Assembly: GCF_037975245.1 (NCBI RefSeq)
Contig: NC_092568.1
Location: 8,815,001 to 8,879,000 of the forward strand
Direction of reading: 5' to 3'
From: Apostichopus japonicus
Taxonomy: Eukaryota; Echinodermata; Holothuroidea; Aspidochirotida; Stichopodidae
DNA length: 64,000 nucleotides
Shown here: in pieces, positions 24,701-55,522 of the stretch
How positions within the stretch are numbered: the stretch's first letter is position 1
Layout of the letters: the number at the start of each line of letters is the position of its first letter
Translations under genes and position numbers: made by a program
Notes under the pieces: generated by a model
What the model saw: only the letters and a program-made list of their open reading frames with translations
Told to the model about the DNA's origin: nothing
The model's database searches: none

Positions 24701-24839
24701 ATTTGTCATGTCTATGTACACCTTGCTTCGCAACAACCCAGAGCCCACAATGGAGGAAATCGAGACAGCCATAGAGGGCAACCTCTGTCGATGCACAGGG
24801 TATCGACCAATCATAGAAGGCTTCCGGACGTTTACAAAG
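15728..24839 (+). CDS. Exons 1-5: N-terminal 2Fe-2S domains of the molybdo-flavoenzyme (residues 1-170)
   Basis: Exon 1 encodes 20 residues ending in FFCNGKK, the usual opening strand of the ferredoxin-like domain. It is separated from exon 2 by a 6.9-kb intron. Exons 3-4 supply cluster II cysteines C49, C54, C57 (motif CQEGGCGAC) and C79. Exon 5 supplies cluster I cysteines C118 and C121 (QCGFC) and C153 and C155 (CRC). All eight ligands known from the family are present, so both clusters should form and pass electrons from the molybdenum centre to FAD. The introns after exons 2 and 3 start GTATCCTT and look U12-type. Confidence 0.95.
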
Positions 24840-30800: not shown

Positions 30801-33800
30801 GGGTTCTATGGTATCATTTTTTCAAAGTTTCCATCATATAATAGCAGATGGCTTGTACTATCATTGTATTTACCAATATATTCACCACGGCAATGATCTA
30901 GATTAGGTGAAAGTTTAGAAAAACACCCCCTCTTCCACTGTTGAATATTTTCTGTTTCACACAGGAATCTGTAAAATGCCTTGACTCACCTTTAGTCCTG
31001 TTTTTCAAAAACCATCCGTACAATTTTCATCCCCTTCAACTTCCAAGCATAAATAATAAAGATTTTGACTGAAAACTATCCATAAATGTCACTTCATGTG
31101 AGACAATTTATGGTTTTTTCTTCTCGACAATGGTTGACTTGTCAAGCAGATGTACACTACTCTAAATTGTGGTATGCTACCTGAGTGTATAGGCTTTCTA
31201 TACCTTGGGATTCACTTGACTAATATCATATACTGAACAACACCCAAGTAAATGTTTCTAATTATTAATAGGATACGTAGTAATAAACGTCTTTGTTTCT
31301 GAAACCAGCTGGCATTTTAGGCTATTATAATTGTAATAAAATGATTTTTTTTTGCCCAGAAATAAACACAGGTATAAAACCATCTATTAAGTGGATTTCA
31401 AAAGAAATAGATAAAAAGAACTACTATTTCATTTTTATCCAAAATTCAGCTTTGGTGTTTTTCTTTCCTTCCGACAGAATGAATTTTTCTACAGTTTCAA
31501 GCAATCGAGAAGGAAGGAAGATCCCGTAGCAGTCGTCAAGGCAGGTATGATGGTGGCTTTCAAAGAGAATACCAACGTCGTATCGGCAATAAGAGTCGCC
31601 TTCGCTGGCGTGGCAGAGACCGTCAAGCTGGCTGAAAGGACTATGTCAGAGTTAGTAGGAAAGTGAGTGACATTCCAAGTCAGTAAAGTGGTCCAAATAA
31701 TAGAAATGAAAGAACAAACTATTAATGGGATATATTTGCTTCATGTGCTTTGAATTGTCTCCGGAAAACACAATTTGCTAATTAAAGTTTATGTTTGGAA
31801 AATAACTCAAATTCCATTAAGTGACTTGTGAAATATATTTTATGAATACTGCAACTGTTCTTCTTGCCCAATCAGCAGCAATTATGTGGTAACTGGCTTT
31901 TCCACGTACACACAATAAAACACACAAAAAACACAACAACAACCTTTCCATGCTGAATATACAAAGTAGGCTATATGCTAGATGCATCTGATATGATAAC
32001 AGATTTTGATAAATTCAGCTTCTTGAGGCTCCCCAAGGAGTGGGGAGGGGGGAGGGGGAATGGGCTGTGATGCAGACATTTCTTTAGGAGACTTGCAAAG
32101 TAATAGGGTCTTGGAAAGTTGAAGGGTTTCCATTAAACATTTTACTAAATTTCTATATGCTGCCATGAAAGTTGGAACGACTCTGAGGGTACTGTCTCGA
32201 GTAAAGGAAACCAACCATGGTAGGGTAGATGTTACCGGTCATTCTTCCTATGTCTATGGGTCTGTGAAAATGTTTCTATTGCCCTTCTTCTCAATATTTC
32301 AAATAGGCATTGAACATAAAGTCCAAAAAATTAAAAACAAATTACATTTTGTGTTCAAGTATGTTTCTTTGGTGAGTGGTTTTGTTATTTCTGTTGTTTT
32401 CTAACCATATGGAAACTTTGACTCTATAAACGGCCTGTTGTCAGAGAATTAAATGCTGTTGTATACGCACAGTAAGCTTTTGGGTTTTCACTCTCCGAAA
32501 TTGCTGTGAGAGCACTGCACACTGTACTGTGTTCAGATTAGCCGTGTAAAGGAGGACTTCACACATTTCTTACAATGCTTTTGATTTGCTGGTGAAAAGT
32601 ACGATCCTTATAATTAACCAATCAAGTCAAATTTTATATCACTGGAGAAAAGATTCAACAAACTTTTCTTTTGCATAGGAATGAAATCATGCAATCACAC
32701 TCTCAGCAGGCACAATGTAAGCATTGAGAGATAGGGACATTTTGAAGAGGTTCACTGCTTTCTGAAGTGGTGTTTACTTTTTCAGATTCAATAGTACGGG
32801 GTTTAGTTCATATGTATGCTAAATAACGATGCATCATTGTAAAGAGGTTACAATATTCTTCAAAATGACATAAGAAAGAGTTTTCTGAGTGCTATACTCA
32901 GAAAGTTATGAAAAGAGTTAGCGCGAAATGTGCTTATATTGTTGCGATATTTGCTGTGTAACAGGGTGTTTTGTGCCCAGTTCCGCAAGGATTCCATATA
33001 TTTGTTCAAGCATGTTTATGTGGTGAGTGGTGTAGTTATTTCTATTGTTTTTAAGATGTGCTCAAATTAAGCTCATTTCCAGTTTAATGTTCTATTCGTG
33101 TACTGGAGAATCATTGCTTCCTTGCATGCAGACTTAACGTTACACTTAAATGCTTGACTGATGGTGTGAATCTGAATCTGGCTGTCATGACGTATACCTT
33201 TTCTCAACAAGTGTTGTGTCCGGTCGCTTTATCTTAATATTGCTATAATGGTTGATTATGTTTTGGTTCATTGCGGTTGATTATTAATATTTATTTGTTG
33301 TTATAAAATTGTAAAAAAAAAAAAATGACAGTGAATGTTATTACTACAAAGAGTTTATATTATCAAGTCATGAACTGGTTAAGAATCATACATTTCCCAT
33401 AAAAATCATCTCTTTATAATTCTCTGTCTTCTTAGAGCCTGGACTGATGATCTGTTGACATTGGCTAATAAGAAACTCTTAGAAGATTACCCTTTGACCC
33501 CCGAAGCTGCTGGTGGCATGACAAAATACAGACACTCATTGGTCCTTGGATTCTTCTTCAAATTTTATTTGCGGGTTTTGATGAGTCTGAACAATACGAA
33601 GGTGTGTTTTCAAATATTCAAGCGATTTTTTGACATAAATTTTGATAGTACACTCTTTTAAATGTAGTTTTTGTTATTATTTGCCTCAGTAACAGCAAAC
33701 ATATATAAAATATTGTAACACATGTCAGATTGGACAGTGTTTTCACAGTCATAGAAAACCTGGAAAAAGTCACAGAAAAGAGTAAAAATGTCAAAAGTCA

Positions 33801-36800
33801 TGGAAAAGTCTGGAAAAAGGTAAGATTCTTTAAAATTGCTTCTACCCGATTCTTCATCCTCCTGCAAATTCTGTCCAAAATGTTTCGACGACAAAGCTCA
33901 TGGAATTCCTTAAAGTTGTCATGGAGCTATATATATATTCAAGAACCCTGTTTGAGAGATATTTGTAATTTTTCATGTTCTTGTTGTTCTTATCCTCTTT
34001 ATTGACTATTTTAGTTACAGATTATGTCCGAAATACAGCCAATTCCTGAAACATGGCACTCTGCTGTTGATGGCTTATCCAAACGTTCTTACAAGAGCAC
34101 ACAACTCTTTCAGGTTTGTACCCTTTTCATAAACAATGAGAAGGCCTGTTGGTTCATCTTTACCTAAACCAATAACTAAATATCAGATGGAGTCATTTAT
34201 CATTCATCTTGTCTTTGTTTAAAGTCTTGCATTTGCTTCAAAATATCTTGTCTATTCTGAGTTTTGCACTTAAGATTTCCCAAAAAATAGAATCCTGAAA
34301 AAAAGTAGGTGACTGCATCATGATGAATATTTTCTACCTTTTTTTACTTATCTGAGCCATTTAATATTCTGATGGTGCAGTTTAAGTCAGTTAATTGTTT
34401 TATCCGAGATTTCATAGTCATATCTGAGAGCCATTCTTTATTTGTCAGTGTAGTTAGTTTGGTAATTCTTTCATTTAAAAACTATGCAGTGTTTAGTTCA
34501 ATAGTTCTGCAATCTCAATTATTAGTTTTATTTGTTTGTCTTTGAGGGTTAATATGGTTGCCTGAATATATAACGTATTTTGACTGGCTAAATCTCCCCT
34601 TAGTCCAATAAGTGGGTCACAAGTGGTCTGTAATTATGGCGGGCCATCAGTCTCAAATCATGGGAGATCAACTTATACCGATTTAAATCGACATATACCA
34701 GTTTCCTTCGACTTATACCAGTTTCCAGCAGCTTAAATTGACTTCTACCAATTTAAATCGACATATACCAGTTTCATTCTACATATCATCGATTTAAATT
34801 GACATTTACCAGTTTTATTCAACATATCATCGATTTAAATCGACATATACCAATTTAATTCGACTTATACCAGTTTAAATCGACATATTTAAATCGACAT
34901 ATACCAATTTAAATCGATGATGAGTAAAATAAATCGGTATATGTAAATTTAAATCGACATCTACCAGTTTAAATCGATGATATGTCGAATTAAATCGGTA
35001 GACGTCAATTTCCTTGGACTTATACCAGTTTCTAGTAACTCAAATTGACATTTACCTATTTAAATCGACATATCATCGATTTAGCTCATTAACATATTCC
35101 AAATCCTGATTTCAGTGATGATTGACATGTGGAGATACATCACGTGTAGTCACTTGGCTTGTCTATACTCAAACACGTGGAGCTACAGTATAGGAATACA
35201 CATGCAACTGCATAGGCCTACAGTATGTACACAGATGCAATTACCTACTCCAGTTACACCATTAACAAAGATGATATTGTTCTGCAGTGAGGCCTACTGT
35301 AAGGTTACGTTTTACTGTAGCTAAATTTATACCAAGGGGGGATTAACAATCACAGTATTCAAGCTCAAATCATGCATTCCACTGTGCACGTGTGTATTTT
35401 CAATTATTCGCGCGCCTTGTCAGGTGACTACACGTGATGTATCTCCACATGTCAATCATCACCGAAATCGGGATTTGGAATATGTTAATGAGCTAAATCG
35501 ATGATATGTCGATTTAAATAGGTATATGTCAATTTGAGTTGCTAGAAACTGGTATAAGTCCACGGAAATTAACTTCTACCGATGTAATTCGACATATCAT
35601 CGATTTAAACTGGTAGATGTCAATTTAAATTGACATATACCAATTTATTTTACTTATCATCGAATTAAACTGGTATATGTCGATTTAAATCGATGATATG
35701 TAGATTTAAACTGGTATATGTCGATTTATTAAAATCGGTATAAGTCGATCTCCCACGATTTGAGTCTGATGGCCCGCCATACTGTGATATGTCATCAGGT
35801 TCGATGTGCTTCAGAAACTTTACTCACGCTACTAAAATATTCTTTTCGATTTATTCTTGCAACCTGATACATCTGGAATGTTTTCTGCTGTTGCCAGATG
35901 CAATTTTCGAAATATTACCAAATTTAAAAATCAAAATTGTAAATTTTTGATACAAAATGCTGCAAGGATGTGGTTTGTGATCTAAACATTCATAAAAATA
36001 TGACTATTGCAATCAGGTTCAGCCAGCAGCAGATCCCTTGAAGTGAATTCTCTAGAAATATCTAATACATTGTATAATTTTACAGGAGGTGCCATCCTCT
36101 CAAAGTAATATGGATCCTGTTGGGAGACCTATAGTGACCATTTCATCTATTCAACAAGCTACAGGAGAGGCTAGATATTTGGATGATATTCCTGAAGTTA
36201 AAGGTAAAATGTCCACTTGTTTTTGGTTTGACAGGGAATGGAATTAGGGCTCCGATATGAAGTCCGGTTGGTCTGAAATATTGCATCAAAAAATGCAGAC
36301 GTTTCTATGACGACGATATGCGACGGCGAGTAATAGTAAATGAATATCTGTGAATGCATTTCATTTTTCATATCATATTTTTGAACTTCCCTTATGAATG
36401 ATGATAAACCATGAAAAACACCTACTGAGCACTTCAAATTAAATAATGTTTGCATGGTTCTTATAAAAGTAAACTTTTAAATGAATATAATCACACACAG
36501 AGTGTATAGCAATGGTCAGTTCAGGCAGTTCATGTAACTAAGGCCTATTAAGTCCAGAGCCCTCGCGGGTTTTTCAGGTCTTTTTTTTGCATGAATGGTT
36601 GAATTTTTCTTATGTATTATGGGTAGGCATACCGGAGCTTGCATTAATTCAGATCATAGTAGATGTGAATACAGGGTTGAACAGGCCATGGTTTGTCATT
36701 TTATCCCCTCACACTTAATCAGGACTGCACTAAATAGCACCATTTTGCAGCCTCCATACCCCCTAATTATCTCATAAGAGAGGGACACCCGTCCTTCCTT

Positions 36801-39800
36801 ATACATGACAGCCCAAAAATAGAAATTGAAATTGGCCTGGTGTCAAGTCCAGGTTAGATGAAGTGAGAGTGAGATCTTATTCTTGAACAGGGGGCCCTGA
36901 AGCCCGAAACTACCTTGATCACACACGCACACGCATATGTATGTCATAATATGTCCAAAAAAGAATCATTTTTTCAATGTCACAAAAGATATATTAGTTA
37001 CAGCTCGGTTCACATACATAACCTGGTGGGATATTACTATTCTTCACATCGCATGACATATAAACTTGCTTGAAACAAACCACCGAAGAAATGACACTGT
37101 TCCAGATTATTGTAAAATACAGTCCACTTTCCTTTCACTTTTAAACGGCACTTTGAACCTTGAAGTATTGCGTGTATGTATGCCAGGCATGATCGATCAT
37201 CCATACAAGACAATAAATACTGAAGGCCACTTTCGTTAACCTTGGTTGGTACGAAGTTGTAAAAATCATTGGACTTTTAATGGAATAATATCAAGTGGAA
37301 GAGGGTGTCACATGTAAATGTACGGAAATATCGTAGATGTAAAATAATATAGCTGGAATCAGAATTGAGCAGGTTAAACAATATATTTATTTTAGAAGAA
37401 ATTAAAATCCTCAGTAATTATTGATTTTTATACCCTCTATTAAAGTTACTGTAATTTCAAATTATTTCGAAGTCAAAATATTCAGGTTCAGTTTCTAAAT
37501 GTTGAGTCTTAAATTAAAAAATTATAGACAAACGTCAAACTTTCAAGATTTATAATCAAAGTTTTGAAATTAGAAATACAGAGGGATGTATTTAGTTTGT
37601 TACTTTGTATACTATGAAGGAACATCTATTTGCAATATGGTGGTTTAGTAAGAACTATGAAAAATGAAAGGGAGAAAATCTCGAAAAAAAATACAATTTT
37701 TACTTTTTCAACAGTGTTGTCATATTTGGAAAATTTAAAAATTAATGTAAGTCAAAATTTCTAGATTTAGCAAATAGCATACAAATTTTGAAATTGAAAT
37801 CCAAAATGTCTAGTTCAAAACTAAAAATTGTGAATTTTACAGTTATGTACAGAGAATTTGACTTTTTGAAGCCCAAGGATTTTATTTGTCCATGTTTCTA
37901 ATAAACCACCACACTCGTAATGTTTGTAAATGCTGATATTCATCGTAATGTTCTGTTATATTCTATTCAGGTACCTTGTATTTAGCTCTGGTTCAAAGCA
38001 GGTCTCCTCATGGAATCATCAGGTATGTAGGACAAAAATGATTTAGAAAGATAGATTTTTTCTTCTCAAACTATTTGGACTAAAATAAAGTTTGCATTTT
38101 GCCATAGGAATTAAATGGACGTAACATATATATTATCTGCTTAGATAATTAACAAGGCCAAGGAGTCATAATACAGATCTTTAGTTTTCATTCAAGATGT
38201 CAACGAAGTCTTTGGTCTGCATATCACATGGATGCCTCTTTTTTTCCTTTTATTATAGGTCAATAGATTTTGAGGCTGCCCTCTCTGTGGAAGGCGTGGT
38301 CGATGTGGTTACAGCTAAGGACGTCCCCGGAAGGAATACCTTTGGTATATTATCAGAGGACGAAGAACTGTTTGCCACAGAAAAGGTTACTAAATTAAAC
38401 ACCTTTCTGAATTCAGTGGACACGTATCAAATTGCTTTTTTTGCTATGTCTTGTGCAGCTATGAGGCTTGTAGTGTCTATGATGTACACATTCATCGTAG
38501 AATCTTGTCTTTCACTTGTCAAGTATAGAATTAATTTCCCTCCCTGTCTGTTGATATTTACACAGTAACTAGTTTGCTTAATAACTCTCTAAAGCAGGGG
38601 TGGGCGACCTACGGCCCGCGGGCCACATGCTGCATGCCAGTGATTTTTTTGCGGCCTGTGAGATGTCTCAAGAAAATGAAAAAAAAATCAGTCTATTTTA
38701 CATCATCACAAAAAAAGAGCTAGCTGCTTAGAATTTACCTGCACTAATGATGCTGTCAGGTAGGCCTATTATCCCCATTAATTATGAACTGTACTGTATT
38801 GACATTATGTTTTTGTGAATACGGATTAAGTACACACACCTATTGCTTGAAAGTCCTCGGAGTCAAAGGTTTGAAATCAACAGCAGGTCATTGGTGAGGT
38901 GTGGCCCTGTCAATCTTTCACTCCTAAACTCTGGCCCATTCATTCAAAAAAGTTGCCCACCTCTGCAGTCTAAAACGATCCTATATCACCCTTACAAACT
39001 GCGGATCACCGAACCTCTTCGTTTAATGTGGATACCCTTCTCTCGTCTTTATATGATTTCCGTCGAGTCTACACTTCATTCTTTGTTCTTTGTAAGGAAT
39101 TGTTTTTCAAAAAGAAACTCAATTCTCTCTCTTTTTTTTCTTTTTTTTATAAAGAACTGGTTTGCCAAATTTGGGTTTGAAATTTAAAAATCACATCAAT
39201 AATTTGATTTTAGGTTCATTGCATTGGTCAGACTGTAGCAGGAGTTCTTGCCAAAGATGAAGATACAGCTAGGAGAGCTGCTAAACTAGTTAAGGTGGAG
39301 TACGAGAACCTAGAACCAGTCTTCACTATCAAGGTAGGTTGCATGTTACTTTAATAGAACAATGTCTCTGTTGTGGTACTGCTGTCGGTTTAGCGTTCAT
39401 TCAAGGCCTCTGTAGTTTCCGTTCTCAGTATTGCAGATTTTATCGTAGACTCATTTCAGTCCACAATTTGATACATCATCTAAAGAGAATTTGCCAATGG
39501 TTGTCTAATTGAGTAGGCGCGTTTGTAGGAGAGGATTTTTCATGAAAAAGTCAAGCCAATAATCCCCTGTGAAAATATGTCTTTCTTTAGCAATATAACA
39601 CGTTATGCATTTACTGACAAAAGAAGAAAAAATGTTACTGAAGTGAATAGGGGTTTGGTATGTTAATTGATAGGCCGAGAAGAGACAGGAAAACGTTAAA
39701 ATTTCTTCAGTAGTTACAAAGTGCTGTCACATTTTGTATTATTTGATCAGATAAGACGGGTAGAATAGGAGGAAAGGTGTCTCCCAAATAAATAGTAACT

Positions 39801-42800
39801 GACATTTGGTTTTTGTTGCTTTCAACCTCAACATGACCATGTGTCTCTTTGTCAACCCCCTCCCTCCCCCCTCCTCCACCCTGCAAGTTACATGATTGTA
39901 TTATCTAATATTCCTTTCTTTTTTGTCCCTTTAGGAAGCCATTGCAAAAGGCAATATTTTGGGTGAACCTGTCATCATTACGAGTGGCGACCCTGATAAC
40001 GGTCTCGAGATGTCCGATCACGTGATCGAAGGAGAGATTGCGGTCGGTGCTCAAGAGCATTTTTACATGGAGACACAAAGATGTATGGTGATACCTCAAG
40101 GAGAGCATGATGAAATTGAGGTCATCTTATCGACGCAATGTCTATCTCCGGTGCAGGTTAGAACCCAAAAAAATGTTTTACATAAAATGGTCGTTGACTC
40201 AGTCTTGCATGTGTGATCCCAATTTATCAACAATTTTTTTTTGTTTCCATTTATATTATTTGATAATTGCTTTATTGAGGTGAACCATGTATGATGGATT
40301 TTGAAAGAGCGAAATTTAAGAAATGAAAAGCGTTTTGCTTTGTATATAACCTTCTTTCCTTTGATTTTTCATTTCAAACCACCATTGAATATAGCTTGAC
40401 CTAAACCTGTTATGCATCATATATTTATACTTTTCATATATTGTATATATAAGCGAAGCGAAAACTGAAAAATTAGCTGGCTGGCAAAATTGTAAACAAT
40501 TCGGAAAGAGCAGAGCGACTTTGGTGGCTGTTCAATACAGCAATCAGAAAATATTTATGTGGCGCCCAATGTCACGTTTGACTTTTAACGCTAATTAGCA
40601 TATTAGACCTGCTTCACTGTCATGGTAACGTTTGACATTGCTCAGCCTTAACTTTGCATTTAAGAATCAGGAAAGCAGACATTTTAATAGCAGTTGTCAG
40701 ATGAAATTCTTCCCAATTTGACTAAAAAGACTAAACTTTATTCCTTTTAATTTGTGAAGCTTTTAGCAAGAGTTTATATAACAAAAATCATTAAAACAAA
40801 TATTAATGGCACCTTAAAATTTATAGAATTATATTTAAAGACGTGTTTAAGCTTTTTGTATTTAGCCAGTTTTCAGCTGGTTTCTTTAATAATACATAAA
40901 ATTGACCTTGTTTAATTTTCAAGGCCGCCATAGTTTCAGCACTTGGCATTCCGAGCAACAGGATCGTCTGCAAATCCAAGAGGGTAGGTGGTGCTTTCGG
41001 AGGCAAAGCCTACCGTTCCACGCCCTATGCAACTGTCACGGCTGTAGCAGCAGTCAAGTGAGTTTCTAGTTTTTGGCCTTAGTTTATTCGTTTCTAACAT
41101 ATGGTTAGGTTCAAACTGATGAGAAAATGCCTTTCCAAAAAATATATGATTTCTGTCTCGGTAAACACCTGCATTTTATATACATGACTTAAGTTGAAAT
41201 TAAATTATCAATGAAGTGACTTCATAAATGTAAATCATATGCAAAAGAAAGTCCCCGTAACAATTTTTAGTCCTAGAACTGGTTATACACTATGGACTCG
41301 CTTGCTCGTGTAACTTTGTAGTATATGCTTAGCAACTTATTACCAATTAGTGATATAAAATGTATGTGTCCTGGTGGGAAGGTTTTTGAATTCATGAAAT
41401 CCACCCACCTGCTGATATTGAAAATTATTTGCATACCCTTCGGAGATAACACAGCAGTGACACTTTCTAGACTTGTCGCTTGATGTAGATGTCAGTCATA
41501 TTTAACACATATTTAACGTACAGTACCTTGAAGAACTTATTGTAAAATTAATTACAAACACCCCTATAGTCTCATTTGTTAGAGATTGCAGGAACAAAAA
41601 TTTAAAATAAATGTTTCAGTTAAATGAATTTAATATTCCATCATGTCATGTGGAAACTGGCAACATCAGAATAATGATGCAATTATGAAAAAAAGAAAAA
41701 AGAACAGCTATAGCAGAGTTATTGACAAACGAATATCTACCACAACTTCTAAAAATGTTCAATTAAACCAACAGCCCTAATAAATATATGAATGAGTTTA
41801 AAAAGTTGATTGCTTTGTTGAATTGATAGGCTCTTGTTTGCATATATAGTTTTATAGGCATTTTCTTCTTCTCATGTCAAAAAATTACTTTTAATTTAAA
41901 AATTAATATAACAAAAAAATGATTTTACATAAAAAATTATTTTGATCAGGGTCGGATCCCCGGTCAGATTAATTCTGGACAGACACGAAGACATGATCAG
42001 CTCTGGGACCCGTCATCCTTACTTGGTCAAGTACAAAGTAGGATTCACTGACCACGGCAGGCTGACCGCTGTAGACGTTACCTACTACGCCAACATTGGC
42101 TTTGTGCTCGATATATCACAATCTGTAAGTTAAGAAAAGCCAGACTTTTAGGCAATTTAGCTGGAAGTTTAATGACTAAAATCCTCTTGGAACAAAGGTT
42201 CTCTTTCACATCCAAATTTTGACAGAAGTGTGGCTGCAGTTCTTATTTTTTAAGGTGAGGAGATTTGTATTCCTTTCCCGACTGACTACAAAATATGTAA
42301 ATTACATTTCTTTGATATTGGTTATGGTATAATATCAGACCTGTCAACTCTCCCGGCTTTTACCCGAATCTCCCGGCCTTCGGTTTCATATTCTATTCTC
42401 CCGGTTTTTTAATGTTTCATCACTTGAGACATTTCTGAAAATAGCCAACAATTAGTCCCATGCTTTCTCACTGTATTGCATAACTATACTTATTTAGGAG
42501 TATTTATATCATTTCAGTTGAAAATTACCAACCTCCCTATTTCCCCCTTGTTCTCCCTATTTTTTGGCCCTGAAAAGTGTTATTCTCCCTATTTTGGGGT
42601 CAAACTGGTTGACAGGTCTGTAATATGTTTATTGAAGTTTGAGAATGCTCACAAGATTTGTTTTGCATAGCATATACTTAGCATTTAAGACTCAGGCAAG
42701 AGACATTCAGCAAATTGTCAGATAAAAATTCATCCTATTTTGACAAAAAGACAAAATGTTTTGTCTGTAATCTTTTGATGCATTTTAGCTGGAAGTTTAA

Positions 42801-45800
42801 TACTTATAAAGCCACTGAAGCAAGATTGTCTTTTGCATTCAAATTTTGGACAGAAATGTGGTTATACATTTCTTCTTCTTTGAATGAGGAATCTTGTCTG
42901 TTTTCTACTGACTACAAACTCTATGGATTAATTTTCCTTTGATACAGGTCATGGTTACATCCTTACTGAAGTTTGAGAATGCTTACAAGATACCCAATGT
43001 TAGAGTGACTGGTATCTTTTGCAGAACCAACATTCCCTCGTGCACTGCCTTTAGAGCATTTGGTGCACCGCAGGCGATGATCGCCACGGAAACATGGATG
43101 AACGACATCGCCCGGATTTGTGGGATATCACCAGAAAAGGTAAGTAGTACTTAATAAAGTATGCTGGTTTGGTTTATAGTAACAACTCTTAACTATTTGC
43201 TCATAGTAACCGTATATTATTGCTCTGTCTTTCAGCTTAACCATTTGTGTGATGCTTCACACATTGTTTACAGGTATGTGGTAGAATTTGGAGTTGGTGG
43301 TTTTAAAGATGAAGGTAAATATATAATGTTGTCCAAATCTGCATTTATACCTGCCTATATAAGCTAAATGAGCTGGAAAATGTACATTATGTGTTGAATA
43401 TAAAAGCAAATCTTTGCTCATGCAAGACAATTAACAATGAGTTTACTAACCCGGAGTATTTACTCAAACTAAAACTATGGAATAGAGTAAAAAGAGCAGA
43501 ATAGAGTAGATAAACATTTTGATACTAGTATTGTTCAGAATCGAAACTACACATCAAAACTGTTGAACTTAAAACAATTGTTTTCTTTTCTTTCATTTTT
43601 GAAACAAAACTTGTCAGCGAAGTTGTCATTTCAATGGGATCTTATTATCAATAGTAAAATTCAATATTTAAACAAAAAAAAGGAAAAAATTATCACTACA
43701 ACAACAAGCTGCTCCTAACCTGCAAATTCGATCTACTTGTTTTCCGCAACTCTTTTCAATAGCTTTAACAAAATTCTCCATCTTTCTCTCAGATTTATTT
43801 TGTAATTTCATATTTATTTACTTCTGGCTAACTCTTTCAGTCTCCCTGTACTATTCTTTAAAGAAAATTAATCAACCAAAACAATTTTGAAATGAACCAT
43901 TTAATATTGCATTTTACTTTTTTTTCCAACATGCACTCATTTGGTACAAACTTTCAGTAACATGTGACTCCATTTTCAGACAAGAAGGGAGAATTTCTCT
44001 TTTACCATTTTCAGTGGACAATAAATATAACAGATAATGTATAAACAGGTGCCTCTTGTTTAACTGTGGATTCTGGTATTACACAATTTTTACAAATTTT
44101 GTACAAAATGCAGCTTTTAGTGTCATTTTGTACTGTTTTACCCTTGGTGTTGTCATGATGTATACTATGCTTCATATATTCTTCAATACAATTTGAAAAT
44201 GCTTGTACAGTGTCCTTTGAACAATTCGAACATGGAAATACCCAAATTTATTTGATTTACTTTTAATAAAAGGACAGGTAATATTGTGTAATTAATATGG
44301 CATGTAATTACCCTATTGTCTGCAGGTTCGAGAACTGAATTTCTACAAGGAGGGAGATGCGACCCATCACAGCCAAGTTCTTCACGGTGTTACGTTATCC
44401 CGTTGCTGGGAGCAGTGCCTCACCCAGAGTAACCTTGCCACCAGGAGAATAAGTGTGGATAACTTCAACAAGTAATGTTGAATATTTCTTCAGTTTATGT
44501 TGAATTTGAGGTGATAGATCATTCACCAACGTTGAATCGGTTTTCATCGTAACTTATTCATCTGAGAAATGGCTAAAGGTTTGCAGGTTAACTGGTTTGC
44601 AAACTATCATTGTGTCACTCTTTTCAGAAGTAAATACATATTTAAAAAAAATGAATAATGTAACAACTTTCAAAGATTCACAATGTACTTCGAACGACGA
44701 CAAGATGAATTCCAATCCCAACTCCATGGATATTGGCTGAAGCTAGATTGATTTGGTCGAAACAACAGATAAACACAGTTAACAGATTACGGCTTATTAA
44801 ATGTGTCAATTACCAATCCTTTCACCCTCAAGCTGGAAACCTCGTCTGTTCGCTTGATGCAATTTGTTATCATTTTCGTTTATCTCTGCTGCTTCAATTG
44901 GTCTGTGAATTTGACCTACCTGTTTATTTCTTTTTCATAACATATTCACAGGGACAACAGATGGAAGAAAAGAGGTCTGGCAATAGTTCCGGTCAAATAC
45001 GGGATCGCATATATCGGTTTGGTCAAGTTTATGAACCAGGTTAGTGGTAGTATGTTCAACATTTCTCTGTTCTTTCTTTCTTTCTTTTTAAATTCTTTAA
45101 ATTATGTCTGTCCTTGCTGGACATCCCTTTATTCTCTCTCTGTGTTGTGATTGTACATTCATAAATACAACGATGGTTTACTGTTTTTCCAGGGAGGTGC
45201 CTGCGTGCATATCTACAAGGATGGTGCGGTCCTGTTGTCCCACGGTGGAATCGAGATAGGTCAGGGGATGTACACTAAGATGCATCAGGTCGCCAGCCGA
45301 ACTTTGGGAATTCCCATGGATAAATTCCATACCATCGACACAGCTACTGACAAAGTCCCTAACACATCGGGGACGGCAGCCAGTACCGGAACGGATTTGA
45401 ATGGCATGGCAGTCAAGGTGAGCAATAATTGTTTCTCTTTTAATTAGTAAAGCCAGTGGCGGAGCTAGGGGTATTGGTCAGGAGGGGCGAGAATGGTTTG
45501 TAGGGGTGTTTTTGACACTATCTAAGCGGAGCGCCACCACAGGTTGGCTCGGAGCGTACAGAAATTTTTTGAGTAAAGATACTCCCTAGATCGCCAGAAA
45601 TGACCCTTTCTGGGCCTTGCTAATTTGCAGATAAATGAAGAATAAATAGGTGTCATCGCCATTTTGTCAGAAAATTACACCTACAAAATGTGCCAAATGT
45701 CAATAGGTATTTGAGAGCACAATAAAAAAGTCAATAATCGTGAATAAGTAAAAAGTGGTAAAAAGCTGAAAAGGGCGCCAGCAGTCCATTTTAGTCTTTC

Positions 45801-48800
45801 AGGGGGGGGGGCATCCGCCCCCTCTGACTGTATGGACGCTCCGCCACTGAGTAAAGCGACTGCACTGACCACAGAGGGTGTAGAAGGGAGGGCAGTAGGG
45901 GGAAGAGGGGAGGGGGGGTGGAGAGGATGGGGATTCTCTAAGTGCTATTCTCACAAATTTCACCCCATCCTCATACTATCTAGAAGAAATGGAATATTGT
46001 ATACTGCAGAAAAATGTATGAGGATAAGGTAGAGGCTCAAATCCAAACCCTTGAGTCAGTTTCTTGAGGCAGTTTCTGTTTAGTTAATTAAGCCTCCTGA
46101 TGATTACATTGCTTCAAGTGGTTTTTATACAGTTACAAGTTTTCACAGAAAGGTACAAAAGTTGTAAAATTAATACTTTATGTAGAAATAATTTACTACA
46201 TTATTGATTGATTATTTTACTTTAATTTTCCAAAGTTGAAAAGAAAATTGATTTGCATTTGGTTTGGTTTCCCAAGTGTCTTTCAGTTTAGTTATTAACC
46301 GTAACGATACAGAGTAATTAATTTTAACTTTGAATGAAAACGTGTTTCTCATATGCAAATGGCACAGTGAATATTTCATCAAAGTGCAAATCAAAGTAAG
46401 GATTTTAGGAAAACACATAAATGCAATGGATCAACATACCGACCTACTGTGGGTTTACACCCAATGAATATGAATTTATTTGCGAATAACTTTTATAAAT
46501 GATTCCATGAAAGTCTAACAATTTTTGTCACCCGGATGCGTTTGCATATATTTGCATTTAACTCATACGAAGAGAAAATTTCATTTTTTGGAATTTTATT
46601 ATCCAGTAGTGTAGGAATACCACAAAAATCAACTCAAAAAGATGAATTTTAAATTAATCATTTTCATTCTTTTTTCTCTTCTCAGAATGCTTGTTTGAAA
46701 ATCATGGATAGATTGAAACCTATTGTCGATAAGAATCCTTCTGGAACCTGGGAGGATTGGGTAGGCATTTTGTTTCTCTTTCTCTTGATTTGAAAATGCG
46801 TTGCTGTTACTGCAATCGTGTGATGCCGTGTTTCAATATTCATCATTTAGTTTAACTACCGTGTAAAGTTGGCACTACTCGCCCATAAGCTCGATGGGGT
46901 AGGTTCGATATTAATAAAGTTTTATGTGGACATAAATTTATGTCAAGATAAATAAGACACATCAGATTTGAGATACTCTCAAAACACCAGAGGTATCTTG
47001 GGGTTTTTTCTGCAGCTAAGGCTTACACAGGCCACTGCAATAGCAAAAACTTTGAAGATGGTAAATAGGAAAATTCAAGTTTTGGGGTTGAGAATGCCGA
47101 AGTGGTGACTCATTGCCACATGTCTGAGATCAGTGATGGTTTCTTGTAGCCTGAATATGATGTACTGTACTGTTTCAATATGAAACATGTTCAATCGACC
47201 CATGCAATGATATGGGCCAGTTATGTCCTGAAGACTGACTCGAAAAATTATAAAAACAATGAGATTGTGATAGGAGACTATCTGTCCTTAAACAAAAGAG
47301 AATATAAATGTAACGAGAAGACTTTCAGATAATGTAACTGTTCAGTATGAAGCATGTTGAATCGACCCATGCTATTATACTAACCAATCATGTCCTGAAA
47401 ACTGACTCGAAAAATTATAAACAAATTTTGAAAGGACAAAGGAATCGTTGGCTGGATTTTAAATTAGCGAGCTCACTGGAATACAGGCGTTTCTCGTGCA
47501 TTTCATTAATCAGCGAGTGAAACATTGACTGGTTTATAAATGGAACAAATCATAGTTAGATTATAGATATGATGGGCTCAGAATTTGACATTGAAATTTC
47601 TCTCATTTTTCACAAGATCTCTGAGGCCTATCATTCTCGAATCAGTCTATCAGCTACTGGGTTCTGGAGGTAAGTGCTTCAAATAGTTTTTATTCTCAAG
47701 GCTATAACATGATAAAATGAGATTCAGAATGGGAAGAAGATGAGAATTGGAAGGTGAGATATAAGGAGGATAAGGAGCATAAGGAGGATGGTTAGAAGGT
47801 AAGGAGAGGAGAACCAGTCTTTGGGCATACTTCAGCATACAATGTTTACTTCTAGGAGATGTAAAATATTATCTCTATCACTAAAGATGAAGAAGAAGAA
47901 AAGTTGGAAGGATTACAGTGTTTGAAAATTAACTTGCGTTCCATCTTTCAATATTTTTGAATTTGATGTAATCATCAGAATTATTTATATTTTAAGAAAT
48001 TACATTATTTTTGTCTTAAGATTTGGTTTTATTTGAAGAAATTTTTCAGATAATTTCTATAACCGATAATTACCTAGTGCTACATTAACACCCTCAGGGA
48101 CCCTGAGGCATTGTCATGACTCCCCCCGCCCCCCTCATTTGTTAAGTTTTACATGCACAACCTGGAAATTGAAAGTTGGTGTGTCTTGCCTGTTAGTGTT
48201 CAAAGAGGAACCTTGTCCATTGTGGGCCCCTTGACCTTAGGGGACCTTAGGGGCCCCTAGACAAGTAGCCAATTGTGTATTCAATAACCCCTCCCATTAA
48301 CTACCCATGCATCCTTCTATCAATTGGTTTTCCTCTCTTTCCCACCTCCAGGACCCCTGACTTGGGTTACGACTTGCAAACCAATCAAGGAAACAATTTT
48401 AATTACTTTTGTTACGGGGCTGCAGCATCTGAGGTAGAGATAGACTGCTTGACGGGAGACCACGTGACCCTAAGAACGGATATCGTAATGGATGTGGGAG
48501 ATAGCCTCAACCCAGCTATTGATGTCGGCCAGGTGAGAAAACAGAGTAACAAAGTAATGCTATGGTGTGGTAGTGGTACGTGCAGGGGTGCTGTTACCCT
48601 CCATCCCACATGAGTCATAATGTTTAGAACAAACTAGTATAACAGAGTAACAAAGTAATGTTATGGTGTGGTAGTGGTACATGCAGGGGGGTGCTGGTCC
48701 CCTACATCCACATGAGTCATTATGTCTAGAAACAAACTAGTGAAACAGAGTAACAAAGTGATGTTATGGTGTGGTAGTGGTACATGCAGGGGGTTGCTGG

Positions 48801-51255
48801 TATCCCTACATCCACACAGTCATTATATTTAGAAGCAACTAGTTAAATCAACCGCCTCCTACTTTATTACGTTAACGTTAAAGTCTGCAAAAGTATTACT
48901 CCTAAGTGATATCAGATTAATAAACATTCTCCTGTTTGTCTTCATTAAAATATATAAATAATTAACGATATATTGAGGAGTTTATTACTAATTCATTCAT
49001 TGAAATATAAAACCTTACATGTTCACCTGCTATTTTGAATTGGTATCAATATAGCGCAAACAGAAATTTGGTATTTATAAATGAATTGATGTGCTTTTAT
49101 TAAAGCATTTATTAGTGCATGCTATACCAATATTTACCAGCTTAAACCACCAAAACATTAACCCAATTAAAAGGATTTAACATATGAGGTACATTTTGCA
49201 ATGTAGAGAACTTGTTAAATAGTAAAAATTGTTTGAAGTCTGATTAAATTCATTCCTGGGTTTCATCCACGTTGGAAGTTGCTATTTTTGCAAAGTTTTT
49301 TTGTTGTTGTTTCTTTTCATTTTAATTAAAGATGGGACTACTTCTTTTTCTCTCCTTGGCCCCTAATGTTATTTTCTTTTCATACTGCTTCGTTAAAATT
49401 GAGGAAGAATTACCAACGATATTCTGTTTTGTGTTTTGCTTCCATTTCTAAGATTGAAGGAGCATTCATGCAAGGCTATGGGTTGTTCCTATTGGAGGAC
49501 TACCGTATCAACTCTGCTGGTCAACTTCTCACTATAGGACCCTCTGCGTACAAGATTCCAACCGTCAGGAACACTCCTGTAGAGTTTAATGTATCTCTAC
49601 TGCATAATGCTGCAAATCCGAGATCAGTTTACTCATCAAAGGTCAGATTTATATAGTTTTTATTTCTTGTGTTTTCCGTGGGGTACAGGTGAAGGATGGG
49701 AGGTAGGGAGGGAAGGGGAATGCATCTGTTCATGTGACAGTATAAGTGAATTATATTAAAGGGTGTGAAGACTCGCGCAAAAAGAAACGTCTAATGCCTG
49801 TAATCTGACCTAGTTTCGAATGAGGTGTAACAGAAGTGTTAGACACCACCATCGATCCCAGAAAATACACACACAGCTTGCTACTGTCGGTAATTAGACA
49901 CTAGTGTACAGTCAGTACATACAGCTGCGGTAAATACCCACAGCACAGTGTATAAACGACACAGCAATGGACATCTCAGGTAACAAGATAACAAGGTATC
50001 ACGTTTCATTGCTGTCTGCATTTTGTAAGGACCGAACAAAGCGTCACTTGCAAGCAACAGAAAGTTAACACTTTCACACGGTTTGGGCGAGTATTCAATG
50101 CTTTTACTACTTGACTATCGGGGCATGTCAAGCATAAATCACATAATTTTGTGAGAAGTGGACAGGGGCATGAAAGGCATCAAACATGACACCCCGACAT
50201 TTGGTCGCATCTTGTCGCTGCGTTCCTATAAACAACATTAACTGTTGATCATGGAGTATAAGTCATAGAGAGTCAGAAGCCACCCCTTCTTACAGCAACA
50301 TGCATGCTTACCCTGGGATGGGGGGGTATTCAATCTGAGGGAGGGGGTGGGAGTACAGACTTTGTGGGGCAGTGAGACATGTGTGAACTGATCTGAGGGG
50401 GCAAGCTCATATTGACCTCTGCGCCCACCTTCCCCCACTTCCAGCTCCACTGCCTGTGATTAATTACCAGTGTTAGCCATTCACCTGTTATCACAGTCCT
50501 GTATATTTCTGAACAATCTCTATATTTAGGGTGTCGGTGAGCCTCCTCTTTTCTTGGCATCGTCTGTGTACTTTGCTGTGAAGGAAGCGATTTCATCAGC
50601 GAGGCTGGACGCACATCTGCCCGTAGAGTTTAGATTGGATTCACCAGCAATACCAGAGAGAATCAGACTGGCATGTCAAGATTCTATCCTCGGGGAGGTA
50701 AGAAGTCATTTGAACTGGTTGGTTGTTTTCTTCAAGTGAGTTAAATCATAGAACATGTATGCCATAGGTCGTGTGAATCTTATGCTTTCCCACTTGCCCA
50801 TCTTGTGACTGATTTTAGTTTGTGACTTAATTCTATTGAAAAAAAACACAAATACACAAGCATGCATTTGCTTTATTTATTTATTGAATTTTCTGGTAGA
50901 TACTAATTCTCTTTTGAGCAATGCCATATATCGGTAAGCCTTACCCATAGGCACCTGGCAAAGACCTGTGAACTTCCACTTCCCCCCCCCCCCTCCCCCT
51001 ACTAACTTCTTTTTATTTCATTTTGATAAACATATTTTTATGATTTCGGTCGGGGCTCAATATTATGTCATATTTTCTCCCGAAGTCTTAAGCAAGTGCC
51101 TGCATTATTAGAGCCCAGTGCCATCCCACAATCCATTGCTATCTTGCTCATGTGCACATGCCTTCTTATAACTTTTCTCTCACAAGTTTTACCCCTTTTT
51201 CTCCTTTCAGTTACCTGAAGAAGAGACAAGTAGCCCTTTCTTCCTCAGACCGTAA
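15728..51255 (+). CDS. Xanthine dehydrogenase/aldehyde oxidase family molybdo-flavoenzyme, complete, 32 exons
   Basis: Exons: 15728-15787, 22698-22755, 22989-23085, 23845-23950, 24651-24839, 24955-25032, 25271-25351, 25597-25747, 27101-27268, 28600-28676, 29867-29963, 30387-30493, 31478-31662, 33436-33601, 34015-34113, 36086-36203, 37971-38022, 38259-38385, 39214-39333, 39935-40156, 40924-41057, 41950-42124, 42948-43139, 44326-44471, 44952-45039, 45193-45417, 46686-46760, 47617-47669, 48352-48532, 49453-49641, 50530-50697, 51211-51255. All introns are GT-AG, phases agree throughout, and the sum is 1342 codons plus TAA, close to the usual ~1330 residues. The ATG has G at -3 and +4 and an in-frame stop 30 bp upstream (15698). 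Domain order is 2Fe-2S, FAD, molybdopterin, as in cytosolic purine/aldehyde hydroxylases. Family membership is certain. The choice between xanthine dehydrogenase and aldehyde oxidase is not: substrate residues are non-XDH (see the molybdopterin domain entry). Databases may label it xanthine dehydrogenase/oxidase-like. Confidence 0.95.
16765..19365. repeat. Seven dispersed copies of 13-mer GTTACGGCGTGAC in intron 1
   Basis: Copies at 16765-16780 (with GCG duplicated inside), 16935-16947, 17136-17148, 19150-19162, 19173-19185 (inverted), 19186-19198 and 19353-19365. The inverted copy and its neighbours form a hairpin (19150-19185) and a perfect 26-bp palindrome (19173-19198). Flanking sequence is AT-rich and not obviously repeated, so the 13-mer itself is the unit. 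Role unknown. Confidence 0.8.
19488..20443 (+). repeat. Imperfect tandem duplication in intron 1
   Basis: Copy A is 19488-20068 and copy B 20069-20443. Both start at TTACTTTACTGGTACTGA and end at TCATTCAAATCTGGCGTT. Copy B lacks two internal blocks of copy A (about 140 and 65 bp). Few substitutions separate them. Confidence 0.85.
20499..20767 (-). mobile_element. Truncated relative of the 3.8-kb hAT-type element, in intron 1
   Basis: On the minus strand it shares GGAAATGGCACTTCCCAGGC-like and AAGTTGCATCT strings with 3870-4010. One end, CAGGGCTTAAATTA, resembles the CAGGGCCGGATTTA terminus; the other end is missing after about 20767. Confidence 0.65.
21531..21720. repeat. Short tandem duplications in intron 1
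   Basis: GCAGGCATATGACAGGTGAT occurs at about 21532 and 21579. A second pair based on GATTAGAT...AACTA...ATATCA follows immediately. Confidence 0.7.
22461..22640 (+). mobile_element. Composite repeat with a U2 snRNA-like head, in intron 1
   Basis: 22461-22501 matches the 5' end of U2 snRNA, including CCTTTTGGCTAAGATCA and the branch-site-recognition segment GTGTAGTATCTGTTC. After that point U2 similarity stops. An unrelated GC-rich unit follows, with a CCC...GGG hairpin, then a box-B-like GGTTCTATCC (22618-22627), and it ends in TTTTT. It lacks U2 stem II, the Sm site and the 3' domain, so it is not a working U2 gene. It may be a SINE with a U2 head, or a junction with a U2-targeting retrotransposon. 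Confidence 0.6.
24955..34113 (+). CDS. Exons 6-15: linker and FAD-binding domain of the molybdo-flavoenzyme (residues 171-573)
   Basis: Exon 6 is the cysteine-containing linker. It must be read in the frame containing RCCQD; the longer open frame there is a shadow. Exon 7 has the FIPYDPTQ and IIFPPEL signature. Exon 8 ends in the FAD-binding LVIGNT (residues 266-271). Exons 10-11 carry WFAG (345-348) and SVGGNI (356-361), both typical FAD-domain motifs. Exon 13 holds the FKQ-S-R-R-K-E-D loop (430-438), equivalent to the mobile loop of mammalian XDH that governs NAD+ access. In that region bovine Arg335, Arg427 and Phe549 correspond to Ser344, Lys436 and Trp554, with only Trp336 kept (Trp345). 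NAD+ use is therefore uncertain; oxygen as acceptor is possible but inferred. Confidence 0.93.
30590..30970. mobile_element. Possible one-ended hAT fragment in intron 12
   Basis: CAGAGCTTCTCAACCTTTTC at 30590 resembles a hAT-Charlie type terminus and is followed by a TTGCACCCC string. No matching inverse end was found, and the right border is arbitrary. Confidence 0.3.
34637..35779. mobile_element. 1.1-kb palindromic (foldback) element in intron 15
   Basis: Ends TGGCGGGCCATCAG and its inverse CTGATGGCCCGCCA are flanked by TA on each side. Each ~500-bp arm is an array of variants of the 20-mer AAATCGACATATACCAGTTT, followed by a unique inner segment (35096-35152 against 35420-35478) that is again inverted. 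Only about 270 bp in the centre is unpaired. TA flanks suggest Tc1/mariner-type mobilisation; no transposase frame. Confidence 0.85.
36086..51255 (+). CDS. Exons 16-32: molybdopterin/substrate domain of the molybdo-flavoenzyme (residues 574-1342)
   Basis: The domain starts with VGRPIV and [10 protein letters not shown] (exon 16). Gln780 in STQ (bovine Gln767), Phe927 in AFRAFG (Phe914), Gln1055 in GGIEIGQG (Gln1040) and the catalytic base Glu1276 in GVGEPP (Glu1261) are all kept, so hydroxylation chemistry should work. Bovine Glu802, Arg880, Lys771 and Phe1009 correspond to Ala815, Thr893, Pro784 and Tyr1022. Glu802 and Arg880 orient xanthine and are also lost in aldehyde oxidases. The alignment is ungapped: the offset is +13 at every one of these sites before a two-residue insertion near residue 1025. 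The protein ends in a short tail, FFLRP, shorter than the mammalian C terminus. Confidence 0.93.
38595..38965. mobile_element. hAT-like MITE in intron 18, about 371 bp
   Basis: Begins CAGGGGTGGGCGACCTACGG, a terminus style widespread in hAT elements, and ends GTTGCCCACCTCTG, its imperfect inverse. No convincing target duplication is visible, so the borders are approximate. Confidence 0.65.
42132..42990 (+). repeat. Decayed duplication of the intron 22 end plus start of exon 23
   Basis: TTTAGCTGGAAGTTTAAT (42156 and 42786) starts both copies. Copy 1 continues past the MITE to TTGAAGTTTGAGAATGCTCA (42633), matching the exon 23 string CTGAAGTTTGAGAATGCTTA (42968). Copy 1 has stops and no clean acceptor, so it is a relic, not an alternative exon. 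Confidence 0.65.
42336..42620. mobile_element. MITE with 13-bp inverted repeats in intron 22, 285 bp
   Basis: Ends CAGACCTGTCAAC and GTTGACAGGTCTG are perfect inverses, flanked by TAATAT on both sides (42330-42335, 42621-42626). The interior repeats CTCCCGG and CTCCCTATTT strings. It sits inside a decayed duplicate of exon 23 and adjoining intron. CAG...CTG ends suggest hAT, though the visible duplication is only 6 bp. Confidence 0.75.
45454..45849. mobile_element. hAT-type MITE in intron 26 of the oxidase gene, 396 bp
   Basis: Termini CAGTGGCGGAGC and its exact inverse are flanked by a perfect 8-bp duplication AGTAAAGC (45446-45453 and 45850-45857). It lies 37 bp after exon 26. The interior module CTAAGCGGAGCGCCACCA is shared with the 3807-4486 element although the ends differ. 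The identical duplication suggests a fairly recent insertion. Confidence 0.9.
47172..47428 (+). repeat. Direct repeat pair in intron 27
   Basis: About 90 bp at 47172 recurs at 47338, sharing AATCGACCCATGC and GACTGACTCGAAAAATTATA-like strings; the spacing is 166 bp. Confidence 0.75.
48540..48843 (+). repeat. Three tandem ~102-bp units just after exon 29
   Basis: Units start at 48540, 48642 and 48743 with AACAGAGTAACAAAGT and each contains TATGGTGTGGTAGTGGTAC. The array starts 7 bp into intron 29, next to the splice donor. Confidence 0.85.
49760..50102 (-). mobile_element. 343-bp TTAA-type MITE, copy 2, in intron 30 of the oxidase gene
   Basis: Starts AGGGTGTGAAGACTCGCGC after TTAA (49756-49759) and ends GGGCGAGTATTCAATGC, the inverse of copy 1 (8782-9124). 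Long stretches match, including the GATCGATGGTGGTGTCTAAC region read in reverse. The right-hand TTAA is degraded. Confidence 0.75.
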
Positions 51256-53324: not shown

Positions 53325-53777
53325 GAGTACAATCAGTAATACCAAGTACAATTAGGAATATCTAGTACAATCAGGAGTACCGAGTACAATTAGGAATACC
53401 GAGTACAATCAGTAATACCGAGTACAACCAGGAATACCGAGTACATCCAGAAATACTGAGTACAATCAGGAGTACCGTGTACAATCAGGAGTACAGAGTA
53501 CAATCAGGAATACCTACAGTAGTACAATCAGGAATACCGAGTAGTACAATCATGAATACCGAGTACAATCATGAATATCGAGTACAATCAGTAATACCGA
53601 GTACAATCAGTAATACCGAGTACAATCAGTAATACTGAGTACAATCAGTAATACCAAGTACAATCAGGAATACCGAGTACAATCATGAATACCGAGTACA
53701 ATCATGAATACCGAGTACAATCATGAATACCGAGTACAATCAGGAATACCAAGTACAATCAGGAATACCGAGTACTA
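53325..53777. repeat. 19-bp minisatellite, about 23 units
   Basis: Unit GAGTACAATCAGGAATACC, with common variants CAGTAATACC and CATGAATACC. It is nearly uninterrupted, with one insert near 53515-53545. Confidence 0.9.
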
Positions 53778-54979: not shown

Positions 54980-55522
54980 TAACCTAGTATATGTTATATA
55001 TGAAGTACATAAACAGTGCATTTTACAGGGAATGACCTAGTATATGTTACATTAAGTAAACATTGCATATCACAGGGAATAACCTAGTATACAAAGTAAA
55101 TGCATATCACAGGGAATAACCTAGTATATGTTATATATGAAGTACATAAACATTGCATATCACAGAGAATGACCTAGTGTATGTTATATCTAAATTCAAC
55201 AGCATATCACAGGGAATAACCTAGTATATGTTATATGTGAAGTACATAAACATTGCATATCACAGAGAATGACCTAGTGTATGTTATATCTAAATTCAAC
55301 AGCATATCACAGGGAATAACCTAGTATATGTTATATGTGAAGTACATAAACATTGCATATCACAGGGAATAACCTAGTGTATGTTATATCTAAGTTCAAT
55401 GGTATATCACAGGGAATAACCTAAGTATATGTTATATATGAAGTAACATAAACATTGCATATCACAGGGAACTACCTAGTATATGTTACATAAAAGTAAA
55501 CGCATATCACAGGGAAGTACCT
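54980..55522. repeat. Minisatellite with alternating long and short units
   Basis: Units of about 45-57 bp share GCATATCACAGGGAATA and ACCTAGTATATGTTA. Middle segments alternate between a TATGAAGTACATAAACA type and a TCTAAATTCAACA type, giving a higher-order pattern of about 100 bp. Confidence 0.85.

What the first reader, a model, noticed from the sequence alone, without database searches (positions are those of the whole stretch)
39935..45039. Xanthine-dehydrogenase fold with an aldehyde-oxidase-like substrate pocket
Seen: at an ungapped offset of +13, bovine Glu802 is Ala815, Arg880 is Thr893, Lys771 is Pro784 and Phe1009 is Tyr1022, while Gln767, Phe914 and the base Glu1261 are kept. Known: Glu802 and Arg880 position xanthine, and aldehyde oxidases replace both. 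Inference: the enzyme hydroxylates something other than xanthine, by independent or shared conversion from XDH. The Ala/Thr/Pro combination is not one I recognise from vertebrate AOX.
Basis: partly seen in the sequence, partly recalled or inferred. Interest (0 to 1): 0.75.

Follow-up and report, generated by a model that had tools for sequence, protein, structure and literature searches.

The report
Echinoderm xanthine dehydrogenase copy, converted pocket
A gene in what is probably an echinoderm genome descends from xanthine dehydrogenase, the enzyme that makes uric acid, has lost the two amino acids that grip xanthine, and has probably turned, independently of vertebrates, into an aldehyde-oxidase-like enzyme.

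Summary
The window carries an XDH-family gene, W (30 modelled exons, 22656-50727, +; first exon unresolved). Bovine Glu802 is Ala, Arg880 Thr, Lys771 Pro, Phe1009 Tyr; Gln767, Phe914 and the base Glu1261 are kept. No alternative exon restoring Glu/Arg was found in the window. The genome, probably an echinoderm, shows five more copies: D keeps Glu/Arg and equals human XDH at 9 of 9 published pocket positions; F keeps Glu/Arg; B (Glu/Val) and C (Glu/Tyr) are half-converted; E is Gly/Ala. Trees put W with B (100/100); W with human AOX1 is rejected (AU p 3e-5, 4e-4). So the pocket changed within this set of copies, apart from vertebrate AOX, and Glu802 went after W split from B. Most likely W hydroxylates aldehydes or azaheterocycles and not xanthine; activity is untested. 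It is a new instance of a known evolutionary route, with half-converted copies in the same genome.

The parts
22656..25747 (+). Exons 1-7 of gene W: two [2Fe-2S] domains and linker; 5' part of exon 1 and start codon unresolved
   Evidence: spliced alignment; Pfam Fer2 and Fer2_2; Fe-S motifs kept in the stretches shown
27101..34113 (+). Exons 8-14: FAD/NAD domain; NAD-site Tyr393 is Gln (30428-30430), Asp430 is Pro (31523-31525)
   Evidence: Pfam FAD_binding_5 and CO_deh_flav_C; role of human Tyr393 from PMC3509653 passages
36086..39333 (+). Exons 15-18: start of molybdopterin domain (a/b hammerhead)
   Evidence: Pfam Ald_Xan_dh_C
39935..40156 (+). Exon 19: Gln767 kept (40136-40138), Lys771 to Pro (40148-40150)
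40924..41057 (+). Exon 20: GGAFGGKA motif, Glu802 to Ala (41008-41010)
41950..42124 (+). Exon 21: Leu873 to Ile (42113-42115)
42605..42658 (+). Decayed partial copy of the start of exon 22 (84% over 38 nt); Ile at the Arg880 position; the rest of the exon is missing, so not a usable alternative exon
42948..43139 (+). Exon 22: Arg880 to Thr (42957-42959), His884 to Lys (42969-42971), Phe914 kept (43059-43061)
44326..44471 (+). Exon 23 of gene W
44952..45039 (+). Exon 24: Phe1009 to Tyr (45010-45012) and two-residue insertion in the following loop
45193..45417 (+). Exon 25: Gln1040 kept, Pro1076 to Gly (45370-45372)
46686..50727 (+). Exons 26-30: rest of molybdopterin domain with catalytic base Glu1261 (50539-50541); exact 3' end uncertain
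   Evidence: Pfam MoCoBD_2

Best explanation
W is a molybdo-flavin hydroxylase made by duplication of an XDH gene within the lineage of this probable echinoderm. The catalytic apparatus is kept: Glu1261 as base, Gln767, Phe914, Fe-S and FAD motifs (shown by sequence). The two charged residues that hold and activate purines are gone (Glu802 to Ala, Arg880 to Thr; shown), so xanthine and hypoxanthine should be poor substrates (inferred from mutants). The opened pocket, with the AOX-type Lys at 884 and a longer 1009 loop, should take aldehydes and flat azaheterocycles in the manner of aldehyde oxidase (inferred). Loss of the NAD-site Tyr393 suggests weaker NAD+ use and a drift to O2 or another acceptor (inferred, weak). 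Glu802 was lost after W split from B; Arg880 was lost in their ancestor or on both branches.
For: Open model over 30 exons (partly by construction, see observation check). Six family loci found; D carries the XDH pocket. W differs from human XDH at 8 of nine pocket positions named in PMC3864932, D at 0. H884K is the Lys that PMC3864932 calls conserved in AOX and His in XOR; Ala at 802 is the residue of mouse AOX3 (passages). All five bacterial rows keep Glu802 and Arg880, so the losses are derived. W+B 100/100 and 100/99; W+hAOX1 rejected, p-AU 2.7e-5 and 3.6e-4; W+E+hAOX1 rejected, 3.5e-4 and 4.0e-4. Precedent: R. capsulatus XDH E232V/R310M has no detectable purine activity and its benzaldehyde kcat/Km rises from 0.063 to 4.1; human XOR with Val803 or Met881 has significantly decreased purine activity and gains AO activity (PMC3509653 passage). 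W-B dN 0.35 (NG86), or 0.34 with dS 2.0 (LWL85), suggests constraint.
Against: No enzyme, transcript or structure was examined. W as a whole is not more AOX1-like than its paralogues: of 1240 ungapped columns it shares 18 residues with hAOX1 that no other copy has, the other copies 14 to 24; within my pocket list only H884K is such a residue. Thr880 and Pro771 match neither human AOX1 (Met, Tyr) nor mouse AOX3 (Tyr, Phe), so the substrate could be a special one. W passes the NCBIfam cut-off of the bacterial XDH small-subunit model (477.0 against 467) and fails that of aldehyde oxidase. Asp429, Trp336 and Phe337 near FAD are kept, so NAD+ use is not excluded. In mouse AOX1 the reverse exchange gave no purine activity, so the two residues are not the whole story. 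Vertebrates are one XDH and one AOX row. dS is near or past saturation (NG86 gave no value, YN00 failed).
Confidence: 0.68

Rival explanations
1. W has gone to one dedicated non-purine heterocycle (for example a pterin, nicotinate or a marine metabolite) by reshaping the 1009 loop, as fungal HxnS may have done for nicotinate; aldehyde activity is incidental.
For: Two-residue insertion after the 1009 position; sister B has three residues there and F one. HxnS has an Ala insertion at the same point (PMC5746545, section 6 read). The Ala/Thr/Pro/Lys set matches neither human AOX1 nor mouse AOX3.
Against: HxnS keeps Glu and Arg, W does not; loss of both is the AOX pattern; the AOX-type Lys884 is present.
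Confidence: 0.2
2. W is an inactive or decaying copy whose pocket drifted.
For: A decayed partial copy of exon 22 lies in the preceding intron; dS is near saturation, so constraint is only roughly measured; lack of stops is partly built into the model.
Against: Base, Gln767 and Fe-S motifs kept; change is concentrated in the pocket (17 of 35 against 95 of 416) where plain decay would be even; dN well below dS.
Confidence: 0.07
3. W is the orthologue of vertebrate AOX; the conversion was shared and ancient.
For: Same two residues lost, shared Lys884 and GGAFGGK.
Against: AU tests reject W+hAOX1 and W+E+hAOX1; W+B 100/100, and B keeps Glu802. GGAFGGK also occurs in B and in the Glu/Arg copy F.
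Confidence: 0.03
4. The pocket is a gene-model artefact, or an alternative exon restores Glu and Arg.
For: A partial repeat of the start of exon 22 exists at 42605-42658.
Against: tblastn of the W exon peptides against the window at E up to 1 listed no further hit for exon 21, one low-complexity minus-strand hit for exon 20, and for exon 22 that fragment (Ile at 880, no remainder) beside two chance-like hits.
Confidence: 0.02

Closest known systems
Xanthine dehydrogenase/oxidoreductase (human XDH, PDB 2ckj; bovine 1fo4)
   Same: Single-chain order Fe-S, FAD, molybdopterin domain; 49.9% identity to human XDH; base Glu1261, Gln767, Phe914
   Different: Glu802 to Ala, Arg880 to Thr, His884 to Lys, longer 1009 loop, Tyr393 to Gln
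Vertebrate aldehyde oxidase (human AOX1, PDB 4uhw; mouse AOX3, 3zyv)
   Same: Glu802 and Arg880 lost, Lys at 884, GGAFGGK (human AOX1); Ala at 802 as in mouse AOX3
   Different: Separate origin by AU tests; Thr at 880, Pro at 771; below the NCBIfam AOX cut-off (1372.8 against 1912.3 bits); 44.2% identity to human AOX1
Fungal nicotinate hydroxylase HxnS
   Same: XDH paralogue with an insertion at the 1009/1010 point (PMC5746545)
   Different: HxnS keeps Glu802 and Arg880; W has lost both
Insect aldehyde oxidases
   Same: Another XDH-to-AOX conversion (recalled; PMC5746545 section 13 notes XDH duplications in insects and vertebrates)
   Different: Not compared; no insect row could be obtained

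Membership tests
Xanthine oxidase family of molybdo-flavoenzymes | Fer2, Fer2_2, FAD_binding_5, CO_deh_flav_C, Ald_Xan_dh_C, MoCoBD_1, MoCoBD_2 in order | tested here: met
   all seven above Pfam's cut-offs
Xanthine oxidase family of molybdo-flavoenzymes | catalytic base Glu1261 and Gln767 | tested here: met
   (kept in 13 of 13 rows)
Xanthine dehydrogenase | Glu802 and Arg880 | tested here: not met
   Ala and Thr
Xanthine dehydrogenase | NAD+-site Tyr393 | tested here: not met
   Gln; role from PMC3509653 passages
Xanthine dehydrogenase | NCBIfam cut-offs of bacterial XDH subunit models | tested here: inconclusive
   small subunit met (477.0 against 467), molybdopterin subunit not met (766.4 against 849.5); models for bacteria
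Xanthine dehydrogenase | turns over xanthine | not testable with these tools
   needs enzyme assay
Vertebrate aldehyde oxidase | Glu802 and Arg880 replaced | tested here: met
   'never conserved' in AOX by PMC5746545
Vertebrate aldehyde oxidase | Lys in place of His884 | tested here: met
   PMC3864932 passages
Vertebrate aldehyde oxidase | shares descent with vertebrate AOX | tested here: not met
   W+hAOX1 rejected; NCBIfam TIGR02969 is the best-scoring model but below its cut-off (no human control row scanned)
Vertebrate aldehyde oxidase | oxidises aldehydes and azaheterocycles with O2 | not testable with these tools
   needs enzyme assay
HxnS nicotinate hydroxylase | Glu802 and Arg880 kept plus one-residue insertion after Phe1009 | tested here: not met
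   both residues lost; insertion is two residues

The most novel reading that the evidence does not exclude
This genome holds a stepwise series from XDH to AOX: Glu/Arg copies (D, F), half-converted ones (B Glu/Val, C Glu/Tyr) and converted ones (W Ala/Thr, E Gly/Ala). On the W line Arg880 went first and Glu802 later; the AOX-type Lys884 arose in parallel to vertebrates; and the electron acceptor drifted from NAD+ at the same time. The half-converted copies would be enzymes of a class that is neither XDH nor AOX.
Probability: 0.4. Interest if true: 0.6.

Novelty: new variant of a known kind. Interest (0 to 1): 0.42.

Why it matters
[quoted passage not shown] A genome with Glu/Arg, half-converted and fully converted copies side by side would let the order of the pocket changes be tested by enzyme assay, and would tell which changes are needed for aldehyde use and which are incidental.

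Tried and rejected
Alternative exons: tblastn of the W exon peptides against the whole window (E up to 1) listed no further hit for exon 21, one low-complexity minus-strand hit for exon 20, and for exon 22 the decayed fragment at 42605-42658 beside two chance-like hits. Orthology with vertebrate AOX: rejected. W with E as one converted pair: p-AU 0.046 (molybdopterin tree) and 0.008 (full length), so not favoured; the order of C, D and E is unresolved. Global likeness of W to AOX1: no excess over paralogues. Lys771 as a marker: dropped, since all five outgroup rows have Glu. First exon: a motif search upstream found nothing convincing. A first scan of prokaryote contigs found no relative; the second gave five bacterial rows, two of them of odd composition.

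Literature, open-licence library only: 'aldehyde oxidase', 'echinoderm', 'xanthine dehydrogenase' gave 0 papers; 'aldehyde oxidase', 'xanthine', 'gene duplication', 'sea urchin' 0; 'aldehyde oxidase' with 'sea urchin' 10, 'xanthine dehydrogenase' with 'Strongylocentrotus' 5, none on this by title and start of abstract; a six-term search on phylogeny and duplication held 27, of which 12 were listed, none on echinoderm copies by title and start of abstract. Searches found the papers cited. Two references were not held.

Full report
WHAT IS THERE. The window is G000:C8:8815001-8879000 of a 671.6 Mb genome in 35 contigs. A spliced alignment of human XDH to the window gives one gene, W, on the plus strand: 30 exons from 22656 to 50727, 3966 nt, no stop, all 29 introns GT-AG. 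The 5' part of exon 1, the start codon and the exact 3' end are unresolved. Pfam finds the seven domains of the family in order.

THE POCKET. In bovine numbering W has Gln767, Pro771, Ala802, Ile873, Ser876, Thr880, Lys884, Phe914, Tyr1009, Gln1040, Gly1076 and Glu1261. PMC3864932 (passages read) names eight residues of mouse AOX3 exchanged for those of XOR (F776, A807, D878, L881, Y885, K889, P1015, Y1019) and, as substrate contact, F1014; the bovine numbers 771, 802, 873, 876, 880, 884, 1010, 1014 and 1009 follow from the constant offset of 5, which the passages state for 802, 880, 914 and 1009. At these nine positions W differs from human XDH at 8, human AOX1 at 9, E at 8, C at 7, B at 6, F at 4, D at 0. 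H884K was not in the finding; the paper calls this Lys conserved in AOX and His in XOR.

CHANCE. Among molybdopterin-domain columns where human XDH and D agree, W changed 17 of 35 on a pocket list and 95 of 416 elsewhere (one-sided Fisher p 0.0013); E 23 of 34 against 125 of 417 (p 1.6e-5); C 15 of 35 against 93 of 417 (p 0.008); human AOX1 20 of 35 against 115 of 415 (p 0.0005); B 11 of 35 against 92 of 417 (p 0.15) and F 10 of 35 against 100 of 415 (p 0.34) show no clear excess. I wrote the list partly from memory and after seeing some residues, so the p-values lean in favour.

THE GENOME'S OTHER COPIES. All 24 matches to MoCoBD_1, all 54 to the molybdopterin half of W and all 44 to its N-terminal half fall in six loci: B C8:6.74-6.80 Mb, W C8:8.84-8.87, C C8:13.56-13.59, D C8:34.11-34.16, E C8:34.26-34.29, F C2:20.18-20.21. 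Further copies may have been missed, as the tool warns. The five others give models without stops (same caveat on the aligner; their first exons align poorly).

ORGANISM. The COX1 contig makes sense with AAA as Asn, AGA as Ser and ATA as Ile, and ND4L and COX2 follow COX1. That is NCBI code 9, of echinoderms and flatworms; the gene order and the likeness to sea urchin COX1 (both recalled) point to an echinoderm.

DESCENT. A molybdopterin-domain tree of 13 rows (six paralogues, human XDH and AOX1, five bacterial rows), with 14 pocket columns left out, joins W and B at 100/100, human XDH and AOX1 at 94/94, and the six paralogues at 92/90 (the last two are not starred, and two bacterial rows have an odd letter make-up). 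The full-length tree of 8 rows, with 16 pocket and NAD-site columns and the first 36 human residues left out, gives W+B 100/99 and a 100/99 branch between the six and the two human rows. W+hAOX1 is rejected in both (p-AU 2.7e-5 and 3.6e-4), as is W+E+hAOX1 (3.5e-4 and 4.0e-4). W+E is rejected weakly (0.046 and 0.008), E+hAOX1 likewise (0.021 and 0.003). The order of C, D and E is not resolved. All five bacterial rows keep Glu and Arg. On the first tree Glu802 needs 3 changes (human AOX1, W, E), Arg880 3 (fewest; this leans on a weak C+E fork), and Lys884 2. Since B keeps Glu802, W lost it after the split from B; Arg880 was lost before the split or on both branches, as Val and Thr differ.

HOW IT MOST LIKELY WORKS. 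Shown by sequence: base, Gln767, Phe914, Fe-S motifs and FAD-region motifs kept. Inferred: no purine gripping. In R. capsulatus XDH, E232V/R310M had no detectable xanthine or hypoxanthine activity, while benzaldehyde kcat/Km rose from 0.063 to 4.1 and phthalazine from 0.0022 to 0.20; R310M alone lost xanthine but kept hypoxanthine at kcat 9 per min (PMC2671166, section 9 read). W corresponds to the double variant, B and C to the single one. Human XOR with Val803 or Met881 has significantly decreased purine activity and significant AO activity by PMC3509653 (passages). In mouse AOX1 the reverse exchange of both residues gave no activity with the aldehydes and purines tested (PMC2671166 passages); in mouse AOX3 seven exchanges plus K889H gave hypoxanthine activity, the seven alone did not rescue activity. 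So more than two residues matter.

ELECTRON ACCEPTOR. Human Tyr393 is assigned to NAD+ binding by chemical modification of its chicken counterpart (PMC3509653 passages). W has Gln there (FLIGQRK); B, C, D and F keep the Tyr; E and human AOX1 lack the motif. W also has Pro at 430, Ser at 335 and Lys at 427, but keeps Asp429, Trp336 and Phe337. This hints at weaker NAD+ use; it does not prove an oxidase.

AGAINST. There is no RNA or protein evidence. W is not globally AOX-like (18 of 1240 columns shared only with AOX1; the others 14 to 24). In NCBIfam it passes the bacterial XDH small-subunit cut-off and misses those of the XDH molybdopterin subunit and of aldehyde oxidase, though the last is its best-scoring model (no human control was scanned). 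Vertebrates are one row each. dS between W and B is near or past saturation, so dN below dS is only a rough sign of constraint.

NOVELTY. XDH duplication with change of specificity is widespread in Metazoa (PMC5746545, section 13 read). The literature searches named in Tried and rejected found no account of echinoderm copies in the open-licence library; most subscription papers are not in it. New here are the probable echinoderm instance, the half-converted copies in the same genome, and the parallel Lys884. [quoted passage not shown]

Noticed in passing
L008 (G000:C8:34280400-34289400), paralogue E: The most altered copy: Gly/Ala at 802/880, GGAFGNK for GGGFGGK, the FRGFG motif replaced by MRAAG (Phe914 lost) and no FFxGYRK motif, yet no stops in the model and the base Glu1261 kept. 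Its first hits lie about 100 kb beyond the last of copy D.
   Followed up: partly
L006 and L012-L014 (C); L001-L005, L023-L025 and L033-L036 (B): Paralogues C and B keep Glu802 but have Tyr and Val for Arg880, a combination that PMC5746545 describes for neither XDH nor AOX.
   Followed up: partly
window 42146-42991: Intron 21 and the start of exon 22 carry diverged direct repeats at spacings of about 627 and 334 nt, probably remnants of local tandem duplications.
   Followed up: partly
window 53324-53775: Minisatellite of 19 nt, about 23 copies, 87% matches, 3' of the gene.
   Followed up: no
window 55102-55523: Tandem array of a 100-nt unit, about 4 copies, 92% matches.
   Followed up: no
G000:C29:14745-16086 and 30842-31219: COX1 pieces also match on contig C29, apart from the mitochondrial contig C35; a nuclear copy or a second mitochondrial contig.
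   Followed up: no
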